DNA of 64,000 nt from contig CM039462.1 in NCBI GenBank assembly GCA_022414725.1, forward strand, positions 37,177,456 through 37,241,455, given 5' to 3'. This stretch comes from Microglena sp. YARC (taxonomy: Eukaryota > Chlorophyta > Chlorophyceae > Chlamydomonadales > Chlamydomonadaceae). The translations under genes and the position numbers were made by a program. Positions 780-56,852 of this stretch are shown here, piece by piece. Below the pieces are notes generated by a model, which was given only the letters and a program-made list of their open reading frames with translations, searched no databases and was not told the DNA's origin. The stretch's first letter is position 1. The number at the start of each line of letters is the position of its first letter.

Positions 780-2870
780 TGCAGATGGTGGGTTGGGTTG
801 CGGTGGGGATGAGAGGGTGGGTGGGTGGGGAGTCTATTGCTGGTAAGTGGGTGCTGGTGGGTGGGTCGGGGGGGGGGGGGGGGGGAGGGGTCTAGTGTTG
901 GTAGGTGGGTGGGTTGGGTGGGTGGATGGGGTGGGGGGGGGTCAGCTTTGCCTGCAGAGGGTGGGTTGGGTTGCGGTGGTGTGGGGATGAGAGGGTGTGT
1001 GTGTGTGGGTGGGTGGGGGCGGATGGGTGTGGGGGGGGTGAGTGTGGTGTGTGTGGGGGGGGGGGGTGGGGGGGGGGGGATGGGTGGGTGGGTGGGTGGG
1101 TGGGGGGGGGGGGGGTGAGTGTGGTGGGTGGGTGTGTGTGTGGTGGGTGGGTGGGCGGGTAGGTGGGCGGGTGGGAGGGTGGGTGGGTGGGTGGGTCTTT
1201 GCTGGTCGGTGGATGAGATGGGTGGGTGCTGGTGGGTGGGGTCGCGGTGGGGTGGGGTGGTTCAGGTTTGCCTGCAGAGGGTGGGCGGGTGGGTGGGGTG
1301 GGGTGGTTCAGGTTTGCCTGCAGAGGGTGGGCGGGTGGGTGGGGTGGGGTGGTTCAGCTTTGCCTGCAGAGGGTGGGCGGGTGGGGGGGGTGGGTGGGGG
1401 GTGGGGGTGGGGTGGTTCAGGTTTGCCTGCAGAGGGTGGGCGGGTGGGTGGGGTGGTTCAGCTTTGGGTGCCTGGGAGCCTGCAGGGGGTGGGTGTGGGG
1501 GTGGGTGTGGGTGTGGGGGTGAGGGTGAGTGGGGGAAGTGGTGTGGGAGCCTTGGGAGCCTGCAGAGGGTGGGTGGGTGGGTGTGGTGGGTGGGGGGGTG
1601 GGGTGAGTGGGGGAAGTGGTGTGGGGGTGTGTGGGGGTGGGGGTGGGTGCGGATAGGGGGTCTAGTGCTGCCTGAATAGGGTGGGTGGGGGTCTAGTGCT
1701 GGTTGGTGGGTGGGTGGGGTGGAGTGTGGGGTGAAGGGTGTAGGGTGTGGGGGGTGGGAGTCTAGTGCTGCCTGAAGAGGGTGGGTGGGGTCTAGTGCTG
1801 GTTGGTGGGTGGGTGGGGTGGAGTGTGGGGTGTGGGGTGTAGGGTGTGGGGGGTGGGAGTCTAGTGCTGCCTGCAGAGGGTGGGTGGGGGTCTAGTGCTG
1901 GTTGGTGGGTGGGTGGGGTGGAGTGTGGGGTGAAGGGTGTAGGGTGTGGGGGTGGGAGTCAAGTGCTGCCTGCAGAGGGTGGGTGGGGGTCTAGTGCTGG
2001 TTGGTGGGTGGGTGGGGTGGAGTGTGGGGTGAAGGGTGTAGGGTGTGGGGGGTGGGAGTCTAGTGCTGCCTGCAGAGGGTGGGTGGGGGTCTAGTGCTGG
2101 TTGGTGGGTGGGTGGGGTGGAGTGTGGGGTGAAGGGTGTAGGGTGTGGGGGGTGGGAGTCTAGTGCTGCCTGCAGAGCGTGGTTGGGGGTCTAGTGCTGG
2201 TGGATCAATGGGTCTAGTGCTGGTTGATGGGTAGGTGGGGTGGAGTGTGGGGTGTGGGGGGGGAGTCTAGGGCTGCCTGCAGAGGGTGGGTGGGGGTCTA
2301 GTGCTGGTGGATCAATGGGTCTAGTGCTGGTTGGTGGGTGGGTGGGGTGGAGTGTGGGGTGAAGGGTGTGGGGGTAGGAGTCTAGGGCTGCCTGCAGAGG
2401 GTGGGTGGGGTCTAGTGCTGGTGGATCAATGGGTCTAGTGCTGGTTGGTGGGTGGGTGGGGTGGGGTGTGGGGTGAAGGGTGTGGGGGTAGGAGTCTAGG
2501 GCTGCCTGCAGAGGGTGGGTGGGGGTCTAGTGCTGGTGGATCAATGGGTCTAGTGCTGGTTGGTGGGTGGGTGGGGTGGAGTGTGGGGTGAAGGGTGTGG
2601 GGGGGAGTCTAGGGCTGCCTGCAGAGGGTGGGTGGGGGTCTAGTGCTGGTGGATCAATGGGTCTAGTGCTGGTTGGTGGGTGGGTGGGGTGAGGTGTGGG
2701 GTGAAGGGTGTGGGGGGGGGAGTCTAGGGCTACCTGCAGAGGGTGGGTGGGGGTGGTGTGTGGGGTGTGGGGTGTGTGGGGTGGAGTTTGGGGTGGAGTG
2801 TGGGGTGTGGGGTGTGTGTGGGGGGTGGGGGGGGGGGAGTCTAGGGCTGCCTGCAGAGGGTGGATAAGAA
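780..2870. repeat. G-rich minisatellite array with strong G-quadruplex potential
   Basis: The plus strand is dominated by GGGTGGGTGGGG-type runs, punctuated by a conserved block ctgcctgcagagggtgggtg and by gtctagtgctgg. In the right half (about 2,308-2,650) the unit is regular at about 113 bp, marked by tggatcaatgggtctag. Further left the units are shorter and more degenerate. All long frames across it are Gly/Val/Trp or Pro/His runs and are rejected as genes. Four or more G3+ runs with short loops occur repeatedly, so quadruplex formation on the plus strand is plausible. Confidence 0.93.
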
Positions 2871-2888
2871 GTGGGTTAGATTTAGGAT

Positions 2889-3826
2889 AAGGCAGACACA
2901 CAAAGAGCACCCACAACTTAGTAACGGCAATATGATAGCACATGATAGCATGCCATCGTATGACAGACAGCCACACGCACACACAGGCACAACAGCCACA
3001 AACACACACACTCACACATGAAAGCACAACACACATGAACACAGAAACACAGAAATACCAAACACACACGGACACACATACAAGCACAACACACACAGAA
3101 CACACACATACATAAAAGCACAACACACACAAACACAGAACACACACATGCTTACAAGCACAACACACACACAAACACAGAACACACACATGCATACAAG
3201 CACAACACACACACATGCATACAAGCACAACACACACACAAACACAGAACACACACATACAAACAAGCACAACACACACACAAACACAGAACACACACAT
3301 GCATACAAGCACAACACACACACATGCATACAAGCACAACACACACACAAACACAGAACACACACATGCATACAAGCACAACACACACACAAACACAGAA
3401 CACACACATGCATACAAGCACAACACACACACAAACACAGAACACACACATACATACAAGCACAACACACACAAACACAGAACACACACATGCATACAAG
3501 CACAACACACACACAAACACAGAACACACACATACATACAAGCACAACACACACACAAACACAGAACACACACATACATACAAGCACAACACACACACAA
3601 ACACAGAACACACACATACATACAAGCACAACACACACACAAACACAGAACACACACATACATACAAGCACAACACACACAAACACAGAACACACACATG
3701 CATACAAGCACAACACACACAAACACAGATCACACACATACATACAAGCACAACACACACACAAACACAGAACACACACATACATACAAGCACAACACAC
3801 ACACAAACACAGACGAACACAGAAAT
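2889..3826. repeat. CA-rich 38-42 bp satellite in the UMP kinase intron
   Basis: Tandem copies of a unit containing acacagaacacacacat, then gcatacaagcacaacaca; the spacing between successive catgcatacaag blocks at 3,365 and 3,407 is 42 bp, and other units are 38 bp. It lies directly downstream (minus-strand sense) of the splice donor of the kinase exon and so probably lies inside its intron. Six-frame reading gives long Cys/Val or His/Thr frames that are repeat artefacts. Confidence 0.93.
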
Positions 3827-17230: not shown

Positions 17231-18230
17231 NNNNNNNNNNNNNNNNNNNNNNNNNNNNNNNNNNNNNNNNNNNNNNNNNNNNNNNNNNNNNNNNNNNNNN
17301 NNNNNNNNNNNNNNNNNNNNNNNNNNNNNNNNNNNNNNNNNNNNNNNNNNNNNNNNNNNNNNNNNNNNNNNNNNNNNNNNNNNNNNNNNNNNNNNNNNNN
17401 NNNNNNNNNNNNNNNNNNNNNNNNNNNNNNNNNNNNNNNNNNNNNNNNNNNNNNNNNNNNNNNNNNNNNNNNNNNNNNNNNNNNNNNNNNNNNNNNNNNN
17501 NNNNNNNNNNNNNNNNNNNNNNNNNNNNNNNNNNNNNNNNNNNNNNNNNNNNNNNNNNNNNNNNNNNNNNNNNNNNNNNNNNNNNNNNNNNNNNNNNNNN
17601 NNNNNNNNNNNNNNNNNNNNNNNNNNNNNNNNNNNNNNNNNNNNNNNNNNNNNNNNNNNNNNNNNNNNNNNNNNNNNNNNNNNNNNNNNNNNNNNNNNNN
17701 NNNNNNNNNNNNNNNNNNNNNNNNNNNNNNNNNNNNNNNNNNNNNNNNNNNNNNNNNNNNNNNNNNNNNNNNNNNNNNNNNNNNNNNNNNNNNNNNNNNN
17801 NNNNNNNNNNNNNNNNNNNNNNNNNNNNNNNNNNNNNNNNNNNNNNNNNNNNNNNNNNNNNNNNNNNNNNNNNNNNNNNNNNNNNNNNNNNNNNNNNNNN
17901 NNNNNNNNNNNNNNNNNNNNNNNNNNNNNNNNNNNNNNNNNNNNNNNNNNNNNNNNNNNNNNNNNNNNNNNNNNNNNNNNNNNNNNNNNNNNNNNNNNNN
18001 NNNNNNNNNNNNNNNNNNNNNNNNNNNNNNNNNNNNNNNNNNNNNNNNNNNNNNNNNNNNNNNNNNNNNNNNNNNNNNNNNNNNNNNNNNNNNNNNNNNN
18101 NNNNNNNNNNNNNNNNNNNNNNNNNNNNNNNNNNNNNNNNNNNNNNNNNNNNNNNNNNNNNNNNNNNNNNNNNNNNNNNNNNNNNNNNNNNNNNNNNNNN
18201 NNNNNNNNNNNNNNNNNNNNNNNNNNNNNN
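17231..18230. other. Assembly gap of exactly 1,000 N
   Basis: All bases are N. The round length indicates a placeholder of unknown true size. It falls inside the macrosatellite, a usual place for collapse. Two long minus/plus frames that cross it are artefacts. Confidence 0.99.
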
Positions 18231-18539: not shown

Positions 18540-18905
18540 CTATTTAGCTTTAAAATAATTTTGGGACACTCAGTTATGATTTGAATGATAATCCCTGAAA
18601 CCAGGTACATGGTCCGTTGGTTCACTACAAATATTTTTTTGAAGGAGGTCCTCAGGAAGGTTTTTGTAATATATACAAACGTGTCAAGAGCTCACTACAT
18701 AGATGGTCAATGCTGATTCAGGGTGGGTAAAAAGTAAGCGTTTAAAACGAAAAAGGAAAGAATTGTCCATGAATTTTACGTTCATTCGATTCCAATATTG
18801 CAGTAGAACCCCTTCATAACATGCAAGGATTTTGGGTCGGTATAGTATGTTGCAAGAGTTGTAATGTTGAGATATCGATCAGTACTGGCATCGAGTATAA
18901 ATGTA
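18540..18905 (+). pseudogene. IS630/Tc1-type transposase copy, 5' part, heavily indel-damaged
   Basis: Nucleotides here align with 46,275-46,610, for example aataattttgggacactcag, ggtaaaaagtaagcgtttaa and cataacatgcaaggatttt. The copy covers the terminal repeat remnant, the helix-turn-helix region and the beginning of the catalytic domain, but has a one-base insertion roughly every 15-30 bp relative to the open copy, so it encodes nothing continuous. It ends near 18,905 where host-like sequence begins. Confidence 0.85.
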
Positions 18906-45659: not shown

Positions 45660-46174
45660 ATGTCCTTGATACTTCCTGGATTGATTGTTGGCGGGTTCCA
45701 TGAATCTTTTGACCGTGATCTTCTCACCACCACAACGTCACACATATTTTGAACGTTGCTACGGAATGCAATGTAACGGAACGCGTGGGGCTAATATATG
45801 CTAAAGTTGATATGCCGGATGATTGCCATCAACTGAATATTTCTGTTGCGTTTAGCAAATGCATGGATTTCATAATTGCAGCTCATCAAAAAAAAAGTTG
45901 TGTGTTTGTGCACTGCCTTGAGGGGGTTAGTCGCTCTGTTTGTGTGACGCTGTGTTATATGGTCCAACATGTTGGATGGAAGTTTGAGCATGCATTTATG
46001 CATATACGTTCCCGAAGACCGCATGTCGATCCTTTCCCAAAATACATTGCTCAGACGCGCAATTACCTCGTGCAAAAGCGCGAGGAGAGCAAAAGAAGCC
46101 TCATCATCACAATCGATCACGACAATCCGGTCGAGCAAAATGCTCTCTCTCAGGATGCAACAAAAACAATCTGA
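45660..46174 (+). CDS. Dual-specificity protein phosphatase, one-base frameshift
   Basis: The ATG at 45,660 opens LILPGLIVGGFHESFDRDLL and reaches TSHI; then at about 45,747 a run of four T shifts the frame and the sense continues LNVATECNVTERVGLIYAKV to a stop at 46,174. The catalytic loop is FVHCLEGVSRSVCV, matching HCxxGxSRS, with the substrate-trapping general-acid Asp plausibly in VDMPDD. Length (~170 aa) is normal for an H1-like DSP. Everything except the T run looks intact, so the frameshift may be a sequencing error. DSPs occur in both algae and NCLDV. Confidence 0.75.
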
Positions 46175-46260: not shown

Positions 46261-46960
46261 TATACAGTTGTTCTCAAATAATTTTGGGACACTCAGTATA
46301 ATTTGAATGATATCCCTTGAAACCAGGTACAGGTCCGTGGTTCACTACAAATATTTTTTGAGGAGTCTCAGGAAGGTTTGTAATATATACAACGTGTCCA
46401 AGAGCTCACTACATAGATGGGTCAATGCTGATCAGGTTGGTAAAAGTAAGCGTTTAAAACGAAAAAGGAAAGAATTGTCCATGCTTTTACGTTCCACGAT
46501 ATCCAATAATATTGCAGAGAACCCCTTCATAACATGCAAGGATTTGGTCGGTATAATTTGCAAGAGTTGTAATGTGAGATTATCGATCAGTACTGCATCG
46601 AGACACATAAAACAATGTGGATTTTCTAGGAAGAAGGCGTTTCCCACAGTTCTCTACGGACATTCAAAAGAAAATGTAGAAATGTTTTGTGACAAGTACA
46701 GAGAAAGCTCTAACGTTGTTTGTATCGACGAAGCAGGATTTTTACGCTGGAGAACACAGCAAATATGGATAACAAGCAAGATCGGTTCTCGATTAACTAC
46801 GAAGACAATGAGTAACCTCCGTCGTGTGAAGTTCACTTTATTACTCGCTATTTCATCTCAGGGAATAATAGATTATCAGTTATTGGAGCACAATTGTAAA
46901 AAAGAAGATTTCATTAAATTCTTTAAAACTTTGGTCATCCCAAAGAAAACCACGATCGTA
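46261..46960 (+). mobile_element. IS630/Tc1-type transposon, left end and 3'-truncated transposase
   Basis: A terminal repeat TACAGTTGTTCTCAAATAAT then TTTGGGACAC starts at a TA at 46,261. The transposase starts at the ATG 46,307: a helix-turn-helix (RKVCNIYNVSKSSLHRWVNA), a basic linker, a second HTH ending in SRHIKQCGFSRKKAFPTVLY, then NVVCIDEAGFLRWRTQQIWI with the first catalytic Asp, and IDYQLLEHNCKKEDFIKFFK. The frame is interrupted at about 46,960, just before the expected second catalytic Asp, by sequence of the M2 family. So it is inactive but is the best-preserved transposase in the window. Related copies lie at 18,540 and 53,690. Confidence 0.85.
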
Positions 46961-48900: not shown

Positions 48901-49066
48901 AATGGGCGTTCCTGCCTCCCGGCCGATTTTGACTGGTTGCGAAACATGGTATGGAGCGGATTTGTGATTCCTTTGTGCTGATGTCTCAAGCTAGAGAGTC
49001 GTTCAGGAGGCTCTAAATCCTGATTAGAAATTTAAAAAAATCGGCCGGGAGGCAGATACGCACATT
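48901..49066. mobile_element. M1 MITE, 166 bp, target duplication TGTA, nested at an M2 end
   Basis: The flanks are tgta (48,897-48,900) and tgta (49,067-49,070). The left flank is the terminal ttccgccgactgta of an M2 element, so M1 landed exactly on the M2 terminus. The right end has substitutions (gatacgcacatt). Confidence 0.92.
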
Positions 49067-52919: not shown

Positions 52920-53474
52920 TGTACACCATTGCTGCAAAGTTTGAGGAGTATGTAAAACAGAAACAATGGCTTAACTTCAAGAAGTTTGGATACAAGCATG
53001 TATGCGTGTTTCACAGTTTCAGGCAGTAACGTTGGAATGGCAAAAATTTTATTTTACATGGAACGCGTGGTATTCGATAATGAGGACGACGCCAAGAAAT
53101 GTTTAGAAATACTCGACCTGTACAAAGAGACATTCTACTTCAGGCGTACATCGAACGTGATGAATAAGACTATGTTTCACGTTTGACGGCACGACAATCC
53201 ACCTATTATCTGGTGACAAAAATTGAGTACGCCCAGAATTGCTGCTCGATTTGAAGAAGAATTTGTAGAGATAGAAAGAAGACGTACACGGCAAACGCGT
53301 GGGAAATACATGGATCCAATATTGATTATGGACGATTTACGTAAGGCTATTCGGGTATCTTTCCGCTCAGAAAAGGGCATTCTGGAGCCTGCTTGCTGTT
53401 ATGTTTTTCGTGCAGTTGTATATTCTGTATCGATCCATGCTATTACGAAGCTAAATATCATCGCACGTAGGTGA
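52920..53474 (+). pseudogene. Unrecognised viral-type protein, frameshifted
   Basis: Three consecutive frames look like one protein: FEEYVKQKQWLNFKKFGYKH (to about 53,029), then FYMERVVFDNEDDAKKCLEI and YFRRTSNVMNKTMFHV, then STPRIAARFEEEFVEIERRR with YMDPILIMDDLRKAIRVSFR to a stop at 53,474. Start and family are unknown. A caaaaattga word at 53,216-53,225 resembles the early promoter motif but lies inside the frame, so I do not call it. Confidence 0.4.
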
Positions 53475-53612
53475 GCTCATGCACCCCCCCCAACGTTTTT
53501 CCATTTCCAAGCCTGCTTGATACACACGGCTTTCGTTTGAGTACATGCGGTTGCGTAAGACCCGCCGCCGTGCGTGTGTGAGGATGCGGTCGTCCGCTGC
53601 CAACTTTGAGGC

Positions 53613-54509
53613 ATGACGTGTTGCAGCAGGAGTCAGTTATCATTAAAAAAATACCGCTTTGAATTTACATTGACAGTCACATGTACATTCCGTCGTTTGA
53701 GGAGTCTCAGGAAGGTTTGTAATATATACAACGTATCCAAGAGCTCACTACATAGATGGGTCAATGCTGATCAGGTTGGTAAAAGTAAGCGTTTAAAACG
53801 AAAAAGGAAAGAATTGTCCATGCTTTTACGTTCCACGATATCCAATAATATTGCAGAGATCATTCCGGATAGAGACTCTTCGAGTTCTGAACAGATTGGT
53901 GCGTACGCCAGATTCTACATGGGTGCCGCCCCAATCCTTCTTGCCCATCGTGCTTCCAGGGGGTACCGAAACCTCCGCTTTCGAAGGTACTGCAAGAAAC
54001 AGAAACTTATTGTTGAGATTGCTGACTTCGTAGCTCCGAGAAAGAAGAGCGCTAAGGTACTCGTCGGGTTTGGTGATTGGAAAGGTCTGGGGGCGACGCC
54101 AATCTCTAGGCGGACTTGTGGCCCTCTCCAAGCTATTCGTTTCGAGCTTCGTAGCCGAGAAAACGTCATCATGGAGGACATCGATGAGTTCAGAACATCT
54201 CAACGATGCAGCTGCTGTGAGAACCACCTTTGCAACATGGTGGCACTCACTCATCGTAAGAAGCAAGACGGTACAGGTTGGGAATGTACAGAAGGACGAA
54301 AGCGGATTCATAAGATTCTCCACTGCAAAAGCAGTCAAAGCGGAGCGCCACGCCAACAGAGCGGTGGTATGCTTCACTGCGGGAAGACTTGGGACCGCGA
54401 TGTGAACGTTCCGCCGACTGTAATGGTCTCTCTCTGTGAGTCGACTCGACATGTTCCGCCGACTGTAATGGTCTCTCTCTGTGAGTCGACTCGACATGTT
54501 CCGCCGTGA
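53613..54509 (+). CDS. In-frame chimera: IS630 transposase HTH fused to Fanzor C-terminal half
   Basis: A 298-codon open frame. Residues ~25-82 are the transposase N-terminus (LRSLRKVCNIYNVSKSSLHR, ISNNIAE), identical to 46,356-46,518. At 53,858 it switches without loss of frame to a Fanzor/TnpB-like protein: KKSAKVLVGFGDWKGLG, TPISRRTCGPLQAIRFELRS, DIDEFRTSQRCSCC (RuvC-like Glu plus the first half of a zinc-binding site), HKILHC and CGKTWDRDVN (last RuvC-like Asp). After 54,407 the frame runs through two copies of M2-end sequence (VPPTVMVSLCESTRH). The N-terminal RuvC Asp is absent, so DNA cleavage is not expected. It differs in sequence from Fanzor copies 1-4, so at least two Fanzor lineages are present. 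Confidence 0.7.
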   Translation: MTCCSRSQLSLKKYRFEFTLTVTCTFRRLRSLRKVCNIYNVSKSSLHRWVNADQVGKSKRLKRKRKELSMLLRSTISNNIAEIIPDRDSSSSEQIGAYARFYMGAAPILLAHRASRGYRNLRFRRYCKKQKLIVEIADFVAPRKKSAKVLVGFGDWKGLGATPISRRTCGPLQAIRFELRSRENVIMEDIDEFRTSQRCSCCENHLCNMVALTHRKKQDGTGWECTEGRKRIHKILHCKSSQSGAPRQQSGGMLHCGKTWDRDVNVPPTVMVSLCESTRHVPPTVMVSLCESTRHVPP

Positions 54510-55048: not shown

Positions 55049-55178
55049 TTTCCCTCACCATATACTATTTTCCACCTGAAGGAAACGTAGCGTGGCAAGT
55101 GCCCAAGTTGAGCCTTACGACCCGACTGCGACAACCCAAGAAGAAATCCAGCCTAAATCCTGATGGCATGTGGCATGT

Positions 55179-55344
55179 AATGGGCGTTCCTGCCTCACGG
55201 CCGATTTTTTTAAATTTCTAATCAGGATTTAGAGCCTCCTGAAAGACTCGCTAGCTTGAGACATCAGCACAAAGGAATCACAAATCCGCTCCATACCATG
55301 TTTCGCAACCAGTCAAAATCGGCCGGGCGGCAGGAACGCCCATT
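55179..55344. mobile_element. M1 MITE, 166 bp, at the 3' end of the LRR gene
   Basis: Consensus ends; the right end carries the variant ggccgggcggcagg (cgg instead of agg), shared only with the copy at 56,687. Flanking tetramers atgt and gtag do not match, so target duplication is absent here. On the minus strand it supplies the last ~26 codons and the stop of the LRR gene. Confidence 0.93.
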
Positions 55345-56673
55345 GTAGTACGTCAACGAAGTGAGTCCTTGAAGCGGTGATATGTCGTCCACGTCGGTGT
55401 TCGAAATGTCCAGGTGCACCAACGAAGTGAGTCCTGCCAGTGGTGATATGTCTTTCACACGTGTGCCCTTCATGTTCAGGTGAATCAACGAAGTGAGTCC
55501 TGCCAGTGGTGATATGTCTTCCACGTCGGTGCCCTTCATGTTCAGGTGAATCAACGAAGCGAGTCCTGCCAGTGGTGATATGTCTTTCACACGTGTGCCC
55601 TTCATGTTCAGGTGAATCAACGAAGCGAGTCCTGCCAGCGGCGATATGTCGAGCTCCTTGCTCCGGCGACAAGACGAAATGGAGCCGGACATCGGTACTC
55701 GGTCTTCGACCACACATGTGTACGACATGTTCAGATGAACCAACGAAGTGAGGCCGGACAGTACTGATATAGAGGGTACACGTGTGCCCTCCATGTTCAG
55801 GTGAAGCAACGCAGTGATACCGGACACCGGTGAGATGTCTTCGAGCTTGTATTTGAGACGCGAAATGTCGAGGTGAATCAAAGAATTGAGGGCGGACAGA
55901 GATGATAGGTATTCCACTTCGGTGCCCTCCATGTTGAGGTGAATCAACGAAGTGAGTCCTGCCAGCGGTGATAGGTCCTGTTCGCCCACCCGTGTGTACG
56001 CCATGTTCAGATGAACCAACTCGGTGAGTCCGGAAAGCGTTGATATGTCTTCTAGTCTGTTTCCGATATGCGAAATGTTGAGGTGAACCAACGCATTGAG
56101 TCCTGAAATCGCTGATAATGGGTGTTCGTCCACGTACGTGAGGTGCGAAATATCTAGGTGAATCAACGAAGTGAGACCGGACAGCGATGATATGTCGGTC
56201 ACAAGTGTGTGCGACATGTTCAGGTGCGTCAACGAAGTGAGTCCGGAAAGCGGTGATAATAGGTCTTCGTCCACGTAGGTGTGCGACATGTTCAGGTGCG
56301 TCAACGAAGTGAGTCCGTACAGTGGCGATATGTCGGTCACGTAGGTGTTCGATATGTCCAGCTGAACCAACGAAGTGAGGACGGACAGCGGAGATATGTC
56401 TTGGATCTTGTCTTCGATAGCCGACATTGATTGGTAGGGTACGTCTTTCCCCCGATTGATACCGATTTTCAACTCTTCGAGCCTGCAAATGCGTGATAAT
56501 GCGTATTCCAAACTGTTATAATGTCTCAGGTGGATCCTTGTGACACACCGGGGTGCGACGCATCTCCACTGTTTGCAAACGAGAGGCACTTGTTTGAGGT
56601 GGGATTCGTTCGAAATCGCATTGGCTAGAATGATCTCCAATACATCTTCATTGATTTCGTCAAAGGAACTCAT
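55264..56673 (-). CDS. F-box / leucine-rich-repeat protein with MITE-derived C-terminus
   Basis: 469 codons, intact, starting MSSFDEINEDVLEIILANAI. Residues ~1-50 resemble an F-box (ILANAISNESHLKQVPLVCK then QWRCVAPRC), which in eukaryotes recruits substrates to SCF ubiquitin ligases. From about residue 90 come ~15 LRRs of 23-24 residues with the pattern LTSLIHLNMKGTRVKDISPL (SDS22-like). The final residues SCRPADFDWLRNMVWSGFVI PLC are translated from the M1 MITE, replacing the natural end. A truncated duplicate is at 29,640. Such F-box/LRR proteins are known from giant viruses. A second M1 lies 14 bp upstream of the start codon. Confidence 0.85.
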   Translation of the reverse strand: MSSFDEINEDVLEIILANAISNESHLKQVPLVCKQWRCVAPRCVTRIHLRHYNSLEYALSRICRLEELKIGINRGKDVPYQSMSAIEDKIQDISPLSVLTSLVQLDISNTYVTDISPLYGLTSLTHLNMSHTYVDEDLLSPLSGLTSLTHLNMSHTLVTDISSLSGLTSLIHLDISHLTYVDEHPLSAISGLNALVHLNISHIGNRLEDISTLSGLTELVHLNMAYTRVGEQDLSPLAGLTSLIHLNMEGTEVEYLSSLSALNSLIHLDISRLKYKLEDISPVSGITALLHLNMEGTRVPSISVLSGLTSLVHLNMSYTCVVEDRVPMSGSISSCRRSKELDISPLAGLASLIHLNMKGTRVKDISPLAGLASLIHLNMKGTDVEDISPLAGLTSLIHLNMKGTRVKDISPLAGLTSLVHLDISNTDVDDISPLQGLTSLTYYNGRSCRPADFDWLRNMVWSGFVIPLC

Positions 56674-56686
56674 TTGTTTGTGAAGT

Positions 56687-56852
56687 AATGGGCGTTCCTG
56701 CCTCCCGGCCGATTTTTTTAAATTTCTAATCTGGATTTAGAGCCTCCTGAACGACTCGCTAGCTTGAGACATCAGCACAAAGGAATCACAAATCCGCTCC
56801 ATACCATGTTTCGCAACCAGTCAAAATCGGCCGGGCGGCAGGAACGCCCATT
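56687..56852. mobile_element. M1 MITE, 166 bp, target duplication AAGT, upstream of the LRR gene
   Basis: Flanks aagt at 56,683-56,686 and 56,853-56,856. It has the same orientation and the same private variant (gccgggcggcagg) as the copy at 55,179. It lies immediately 5' of the LRR start codon, so it replaces or separates the native promoter. Confidence 0.95.

What the first reader, a model, noticed from the sequence alone, without database searches (positions are those of the whole stretch)
53613..54509. Open in-frame chimera of a transposase DNA-binding head and a Fanzor nuclease C-terminus
The frame runs from the IS630-type HTH (identical to 46,356-46,518) into a TnpB/Fanzor-like C-terminal half with DEFRTS, CSCC...HC zinc-site residues and WDRDVN, without a stop, for 298 codons. 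The switch at 53,858 follows ATTGCAGAG exactly. Seen: the frame and motifs. Known: Fanzors are eukaryotic/viral TnpB homologues carried by several transposon classes, including mariner-like ones. Inference: either chance fusion by deletion, or a domesticated fusion protein that binds transposon ends with a dead nuclease domain.
Basis: partly seen in the sequence, partly recalled or inferred. Interest (0 to 1): 0.8.

Follow-up and report, generated by a model that had tools for sequence, protein, structure and literature searches.

The report
Rearranged scrap of a Fanzor-carrying transposon
A piece of a common jumping gene lost its middle and both ends, so that the start of its transposase happens to read straight into the end of its nuclease; it looks like an ordinary genomic scar, not a new protein.

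Summary
The frame is real: 53613-54509 is open for 298 codons, with an IS630-type HTH head and a Fanzor tail. But two unrelated genes have not met. Both pieces come from one 3.38-kb TIR transposon of this 568-Mb genome, which carries an IS630/mariner transposase (ORF1, 327 aa) followed by a Fanzor (ORF2, 770 aa). The window holds element positions 96-258 joined to 2550-3099. The middle 2,291 bp and both ends are missing, and the scrap sits in a minisatellite of a host repeat that lacks it in a paralogue. Head and tail keep phase by a one-in-three chance. The junction occurs once in the genome, while each marker has about 250 matches. Of 6 loci opened with an ORF1-to-ORF2 deletion, only the window has one frame holding both HTH and Fanzor tail. 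RuvC-I, residues 1-507 of Fanzor and the DDE domain are lost. Best reading: a young, non-functional deletion relic. Worth keeping: three database proteins (P0048, P0060, P0070) carry the same kind of in-frame fusion at other junctions, also without RuvC-I.

The parts
53417..53695 (+). host repeat flank left of the scrap (its 3' part, from the ATG at 53613, supplies residues 1-28 of the ORF)
   Evidence: 95% match to L011:7493-7762, where the same host repeat runs on into a minisatellite with no such insert
53696..53858 (+). element positions 96-258: part of the transposase gene, residues 18-71 (first HTH)
   Evidence: 162 of 164 nt identical to the element in L011; 100% over 54 aa to ORF1
53858..53859 (+). 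internal deletion junction; 2,291 bp of the element (259-2549) missing; 1-nt microhomology (A); no GT-AG borders
   Evidence: the only match in the genome at up to 3 mismatches
53859..54408 (+). element positions 2550-3099: Fanzor ORF2 residues 508-690 (alternative RuvC-II Glu, zinc site, RuvC-III Asp)
   Evidence: 553 of 555 aligned columns identical to the L011 element, the other two being one substitution and one gap at the host junction; residue positions
54408..54506 (+). host 45-bp minisatellite, 2.2 units, read in frame as the ORF's last 33 residues
   Evidence: TRF; a related array in L011
53613..54509 (+). composite open frame, 298 codons plus stop
46262..46959 (+). sister copy of the same element, 5' end only (element 1-695, with its left end)
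   Evidence: 98.9% over 698 nt
18553..18895 (+). more diverged copy of the element's 5' end (element 15-341)
   Evidence: 88.6% identity

Best explanation
The frame is a relic of one Tc1/mariner-IS630-type transposon that carries a Fanzor gene. An element copy, or a DNA copy made during repair, lost its middle (259-2549) and both ends and came to rest, or decayed in place, inside a host minisatellite through end-joining-like junctions with 0, 1 and 2 nt of microhomology. Both source frames were open, so the joined frame is open wherever the phases match (one chance in three); the minisatellite happens to lack stops in that phase. The product would carry one HTH region without the transposase's first 17 residues and the last part of Fanzor without RuvC-I, so neither transposase nor nuclease activity is expected. 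Shown: the source, the breakpoints, the empty paralogue, the uniqueness and the lost residues. Inferred: the repair route and the absence of function.
For: Both pieces lie collinear in one 3.38-kb element; L009, L011, L012, L013 and L014 carry it at 98.7-99.6% pairwise identity. Inverted ends with TA at both outer edges are seen in 6 of 6 copies whose ends were printed. The host repeat without the insert is present beside L011. The junction is single-copy against 263 tail and 251 head marker matches at up to 2 mismatches. Damage is usual in this family: of 39 other copies fetched, all chosen for the 3' segment, 19 are full-length, 11 are 5'-truncated and 9 are internally deleted. In-frame odds are 0.333; of 6 loci opened with an ORF1-to-ORF2 deletion, 1 (the window) has a frame with both HTH and Fanzor tail. 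RuvC-I Asp457 is conserved in 44 of 44 homologues and absent here. The chimera model has pLDDT under 50 over residues 1-55 (the head had few alignment rows), and the strands of the parent model at 451-477 lie in the deleted part. Mariner internal deletions and abortive gap repair are described in PMC4161770 (passages seen).
Against: The two base changes private to this copy (53735, 54299) are both synonymous, which has about a 5% chance if changes fall at random. Three database proteins show similar in-frame fusions. The join of L049, filler counted, is also in nominal phase, though its frame is closed elsewhere. No expression data were available. Loss of both ends is unlike the other copies fetched, 39 of 39 of which keep the 3' end, so the route by which this scrap arose is not explained by the family's usual damage.
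Confidence: 0.93

Rival explanations
1. A KP-like repressor: internally deleted copies of this element class encode an HTH-Fanzor-tail protein that occupies the transposon ends and damps transposition.
For: In 4 of 4 fusions found (window ORF, P0048, P0060, P0070) the transposase head, the alternative RuvC-II Glu and three zinc cysteines are kept and the RuvC-I Asp is lost. P-element KP is a repressor made by a small internally deleted copy (PMC7776569 passages). Both private changes are synonymous.
Against: A protein database can only show in-frame fusions, so their recurrence is expected without selection. The window copy has no TIR, is single-copy, lacks the first 17 transposase residues and everything after residue 71, and its first 55 residues are not modelled with confidence. 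None of 5 sister loci opened with an ORF1-to-ORF2 deletion has a frame holding both parts. P0070 lacks the fourth zinc cysteine and the RuvC-III Asp and its tail looks frameshifted (my reading).
Confidence: 0.03
2. Processed retrocopy of a spliced transposase-Fanzor transcript.
For: The head and tail order fits two exons.
Against: The missing stretch starts AACCCC and ends GTGGT, with no GT-AG in either register; both outer ends are truncated; no poly-A run is seen at the right border.
Confidence: 0.01
3. Assembly error joining two copies.
For: The element is highly repeated.
Against: Two private base changes, one in each piece, and host flanks that match the empty paralogue on both sides make a collapse or misjoin unlikely.
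Confidence: 0.03

Closest known systems
Fanzor1-carrying Tc1/mariner elements (PUl-1, PGv-1; Bao and Jurka 2013, PMC3627910, passages seen)
   Same: Mariner-like transposase and Fanzor in one element with terminal inverted repeats and TA at the insertion site
   Different: The window copy has neither terminus nor either complete catalytic core; in this genome's full element I found two ORFs (PGv-1 is described with a third protein, an endonuclease)
SpuFz, Spizellomyces punctatus Fanzor (PDB 8gkh)
   Same: ORF2 of the full element matches by sequence (E 1.4e-8) and by fold (E 2.4e-18)
   Different: The window frame keeps only residues 508-690 of the 770, without RuvC-I
Internally deleted mariner copies and MITEs (PMC4161770, passages seen)
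   Same: Internal deletion of an autonomous element, said there to be easily explained by abortive gap repair
   Different: The window copy also lost both TIRs, so it is not expected to move in its present form
P-element KP repressor (PMC7776569, passages seen)
   Same: Internally deleted element; truncated P transposases keep a DNA-binding head
   Different: Repression untested here; no termini, single copy, incomplete HTH region

Membership tests
Fanzor nuclease (window frame) | RuvC-I Asp in a DPG motif | tested here: not met
   Asp457 is conserved in 44 of 44 homologues and falls in the deleted part
Fanzor nuclease (window frame) | alternative RuvC-II Glu six residues before the zinc finger, zinc cysteines, RuvC-III Asp | tested here: met
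   Glu617, Cys624, Cys627, Cys663, Cys681 and Asp688 all present; criterion from PMC10711439 passages
Fanzor nuclease (parent ORF2) | DPG RuvC-I, alternative Glu, zinc finger, Fanzor fold | tested here: met
   Asp457, Pro458 and Gly459 invariant in 46 sequences; the seven best PDB fold matches are all Fanzor chains
Fanzor nuclease (parent ORF2) | RNA-guided DNA cleavage | not testable with these tools
   no guide-RNA or activity data
Fanzor1 rather than Fanzor2 (parent ORF2) | place in the Fanzor1 clade | not tested
   no tree built; the mariner setting suggests Fanzor1 (PMC3627910 passages)
Tc1/mariner-IS630 transposon (parent) | DDE transposase domain and terminal inverted repeats | tested here: met
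   DDE_3 89.5 bits; inverted ends in 6 of 6 copies printed
Tc1/mariner-IS630 transposon (parent) | TA target duplication | tested here: inconclusive
   TA stands at both outer edges in 6 of 6 copies printed; that it is a duplicated target and not part of the ends is inferred
Tc1/mariner-IS630 transposon (window copy) | two terminal inverted repeats | tested here: not met
   element 1-95 and 3100-3377 have no match beside the scrap
Domesticated transposon gene | selection on the frame, expression, conservation between species | tested here: inconclusive
   only 2 private changes, both synonymous; no transcript or second species available
KP-type repressor | binds the element's ends and lowers transposition | not testable with these tools
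   would need expression and binding assays

The most novel reading that the evidence does not exclude
Fanzor-carrying mariner elements repeatedly give rise, through internal deletion, to in-frame proteins that pair the transposase DNA-binding head with a Fanzor tail lacking RuvC-I, and some of these act as encoded brakes on their own transposon. The window ORF would be one such case and P0048, P0060 and P0070 others.
Probability: 0.04. Interest if true: 0.65.

Novelty: new member of a known kind. Interest (0 to 1): 0.18.

Why it matters
It shows how an open, motif-rich chimeric frame can come from deletions inside a two-gene transposon, and it warns against calling domestication from an open frame alone. 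It also documents a Fanzor-carrying mariner-type element with about 250 matches per marker and full-length copies 98-99% alike in a large genome. If the recurrent fusions did act as repressors, they would be a new regulatory by-product of Fanzor elements.

Tried and rejected
Intron or retrocopy reading: rejected, no GT-AG at the junction in either register. Two unrelated transposons nested in one another: rejected, both pieces are collinear in one element. Amplified chimeric family: rejected, the junction is single-copy at up to 3 mismatches. Viral carrier: a viral-contig scan with ORF2 found no relative (close relatives only). Rfam and tRNA scans of the window were empty; a sequence search of solved structures with the chimera found nothing. 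NCBIfam gave the chimera only a weak IS3 match (E 0.031), while the sister ORF at 46307 matched transpos_IS630 at 54.9 bits, below its cut-off of 100. Literature: six paper searches; among the rows listed (for, 15 of 29 papers) I saw no title or abstract start on a natural transposase-Fanzor fusion; papers beyond those rows were not seen.

Limits: one search scored 40 of 1,270 candidates and all 39 non-window copies were fetched, so the tallies describe copies chosen for the 3' segment. One search was given 76 of the 100 listed head places and the 100 listed tail places, exact matches only: 22 at full spacing, 7 shorter (the window included), 3 longer, 44 heads with no listed tail in reach; of the 7 shorter, two (spacings 2,698 and 2,748) were not opened. 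One search scored 7,995 candidates, not all.

Full report
Observation. The frame 53613-54509 is open for 298 codons. Its HTH part, 53696-53859, repeats 46357-46520 at 99% over 164 nt, and its second half matches the Cas12f1-like TNB profile below the curated cut-off.

Source. A search of the window's own genome (568,105,699 bases, 2,390 contigs, unnamed) found the second half in many near-identical copies; in 39 of the 39 other rows scored the match covers query 247-800. Longer stretches showed why: L009, L011, L012, L013 and L014 carry one element of about 3.38 kb at 98.7-99.6% pairwise identity. In 6 of 6 copies whose ends were printed it has inverted ends (CAGTTGTTCTCAAATAA, with one change at the left end of L011) with TA at both outer edges. 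Its first ORF is an IS630/mariner-type transposase of 327 aa (DDE_3, 89.5 bits); its second is a 770-aa Fanzor (TNB, 33.8 bits). ORF2 matches the solved SpuFz by sequence (E 1.4e-8), and its predicted model (mean pLDDT 84.9) has Fanzor chains as its seven best PDB matches. The window scrap is element 96-258 joined to element 2550-3099.

How it lies. To the left is a host repeat, to the right a 45-bp minisatellite of the same repeat. Beside L011 the same host repeat is present without the scrap, with only minisatellite at that place; L011 itself is a full element inserted elsewhere in that repeat. The three junctions show 0 nt (left), 1 nt (middle) and 2 nt (right) of microhomology, my reading. 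Neither element end is present. The middle junction has no GT-AG borders, so it does not look like a spliced-out intron. The repair route is inferred: either capture of element pieces at a break, or three deletions of a once complete insertion; the data do not choose.

Why the frame is open. Transposase and Fanzor frames were both open and recent, so a deletion from one into the other leaves an open frame whenever the phases match, one third of the time. The host flank supplies an ATG, and the minisatellite lacks stops in that phase. Six loci with a deletion from ORF1 into ORF2 were opened: the window, L030, L043, L049, L050 and L051. Only the window has a single frame holding both HTH and Fanzor tail; none of the other 5 has. 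L030 is out of phase and stops soon after the join. L043 is open into the Fanzor tail but from only 7 codons before the join. L049 and L050 share a head breakpoint with filler; the join of L049 is in nominal phase, filler counted, but its frame is closed. These loci come from the 39 fetched copies and from the exact-match part of the marker lists, not from a full census.

How common. The tail marker has 263 and the head marker 251 matches at up to 2 mismatches. The chimera junction has one, the window itself. Of 39 other copies, all chosen because they carry the 3' segment, 19 are full-length, 11 are 5'-truncated and 9 are internally deleted, and 39 of 39 keep the 3' end. The window scrap, without its 3' end, is unlike them in this.

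Selection. Against the fetched copies, the window has private changes at 53735 (20 of 20 others that hold this part differ) and 54299 (39 of 39 differ); both are synonymous, while 53777 is shared with 6 of 20. In each marker listing the window was the only one of the 100 listed places with its private base; the remaining 163 and 151 places were counted but not listed. About 22% of random changes in this frame would be synonymous, so 2 of 2 has roughly a 5% chance: too little to argue from, but it does not go against function.

What is lost. RuvC-I Asp457, conserved in 44 of 44 homologues, lies in the deleted part; the alternative Glu617, the zinc cysteines and Asp688 remain. The strands at 451-477 of the parent model are gone. 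The chimera model has mean pLDDT 70.4, mostly above 70 in the Fanzor half but under 50 over residues 1-55, which hold about half of the Pfam HTH match at 31-82; few rows of the alignment cover the head, so this is weak evidence. Its five best PDB matches are still Fanzors. The transposase DDE domain is absent.

Fusions elsewhere. A protein search with the window ORF gave 13 hits, of which one, P0048, matches both halves; a search with P0048 added P0060 and P0070. Among 72 proteins held, these three and the window ORF are the only ones that match both a transposase and a Fanzor set at E 1e-4. Their joins differ: P0048 from transposase residue about 131 to Fanzor about 475, P0060 from about 172 to about 607, and P0070 from about its own residue 124-137 to Fanzor 575. 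P0048 and P0060 share their head and a 99% identical tail, so they come from closely similar elements. All lack the RuvC-I Asp; P0070 also lacks the fourth zinc cysteine and the RuvC-III Asp. In Pfam the HTH and TNB matches of P0048 are all below the curated cut-offs. Each of the three stands for a single contig of 1,452-1,595 bases in the source marked ena. Because a protein database shows only in-frame fusions, this recurrence does not by itself speak for selection.

Known context. Fanzor1 in Tc/mariner elements is described in PMC3627910 (passages), the Fanzor residue signature in PMC10711439 (passages), mariner internal deletions and abortive gap repair in PMC4161770 (passages), KP repressors in PMC7776569 (passages), and the spread of internally deleted P elements in PMC12393704 (abstract and section list).

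Verdict. A young deletion relic of a known kind of transposon; ordinary in mechanism, with a small open question about recurrent transposase-Fanzor fusions.

Noticed in passing
L011:5146-5150: The transposase stop and the Fanzor start overlap as TGATG, which could couple translation of the two ORFs by termination and re-initiation.
   Followed up: no
P0048, P0060, P0070 (protein database): Three database proteins with a transposase head fused in frame to a Fanzor tail at other junctions, all without the RuvC-I Asp.
   Followed up: partly
L049:572-2113 and L050:568-2127: Two loci share a deletion from element 330 to about 2135-2153 with filler DNA and keep both element ends, which looks like a deletion derivative that has moved.
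   Followed up: partly
L022, L026, L041: Three loci share an internal deletion from element 145 to 784 with a 12-nt overlap at the join, also suggesting a deletion derivative that has spread.
   Followed up: no
39 fetched copies (L009-L014, L016-L048): 39 of 39 keep the element's 3' end while 11 are 5'-truncated, an asymmetry that is odd for a cut-and-paste element; the sample was chosen by a 3' segment.
   Followed up: no
55264-56673: A 469-aa leucine-rich-repeat protein on the minus strand, flanked by a 168-bp repeat at 55177-55344 and 56685-56852, with an inverted copy at 48901-49066.
   Followed up: no
45749-46174: Dual-specificity phosphatase-like ORF (DSPc, 71.6 bits) just upstream of the 5' element copy at 46262.
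   Followed up: no
17231-18230: A run of 1,000 N, presumably a scaffold gap.
   Followed up: no
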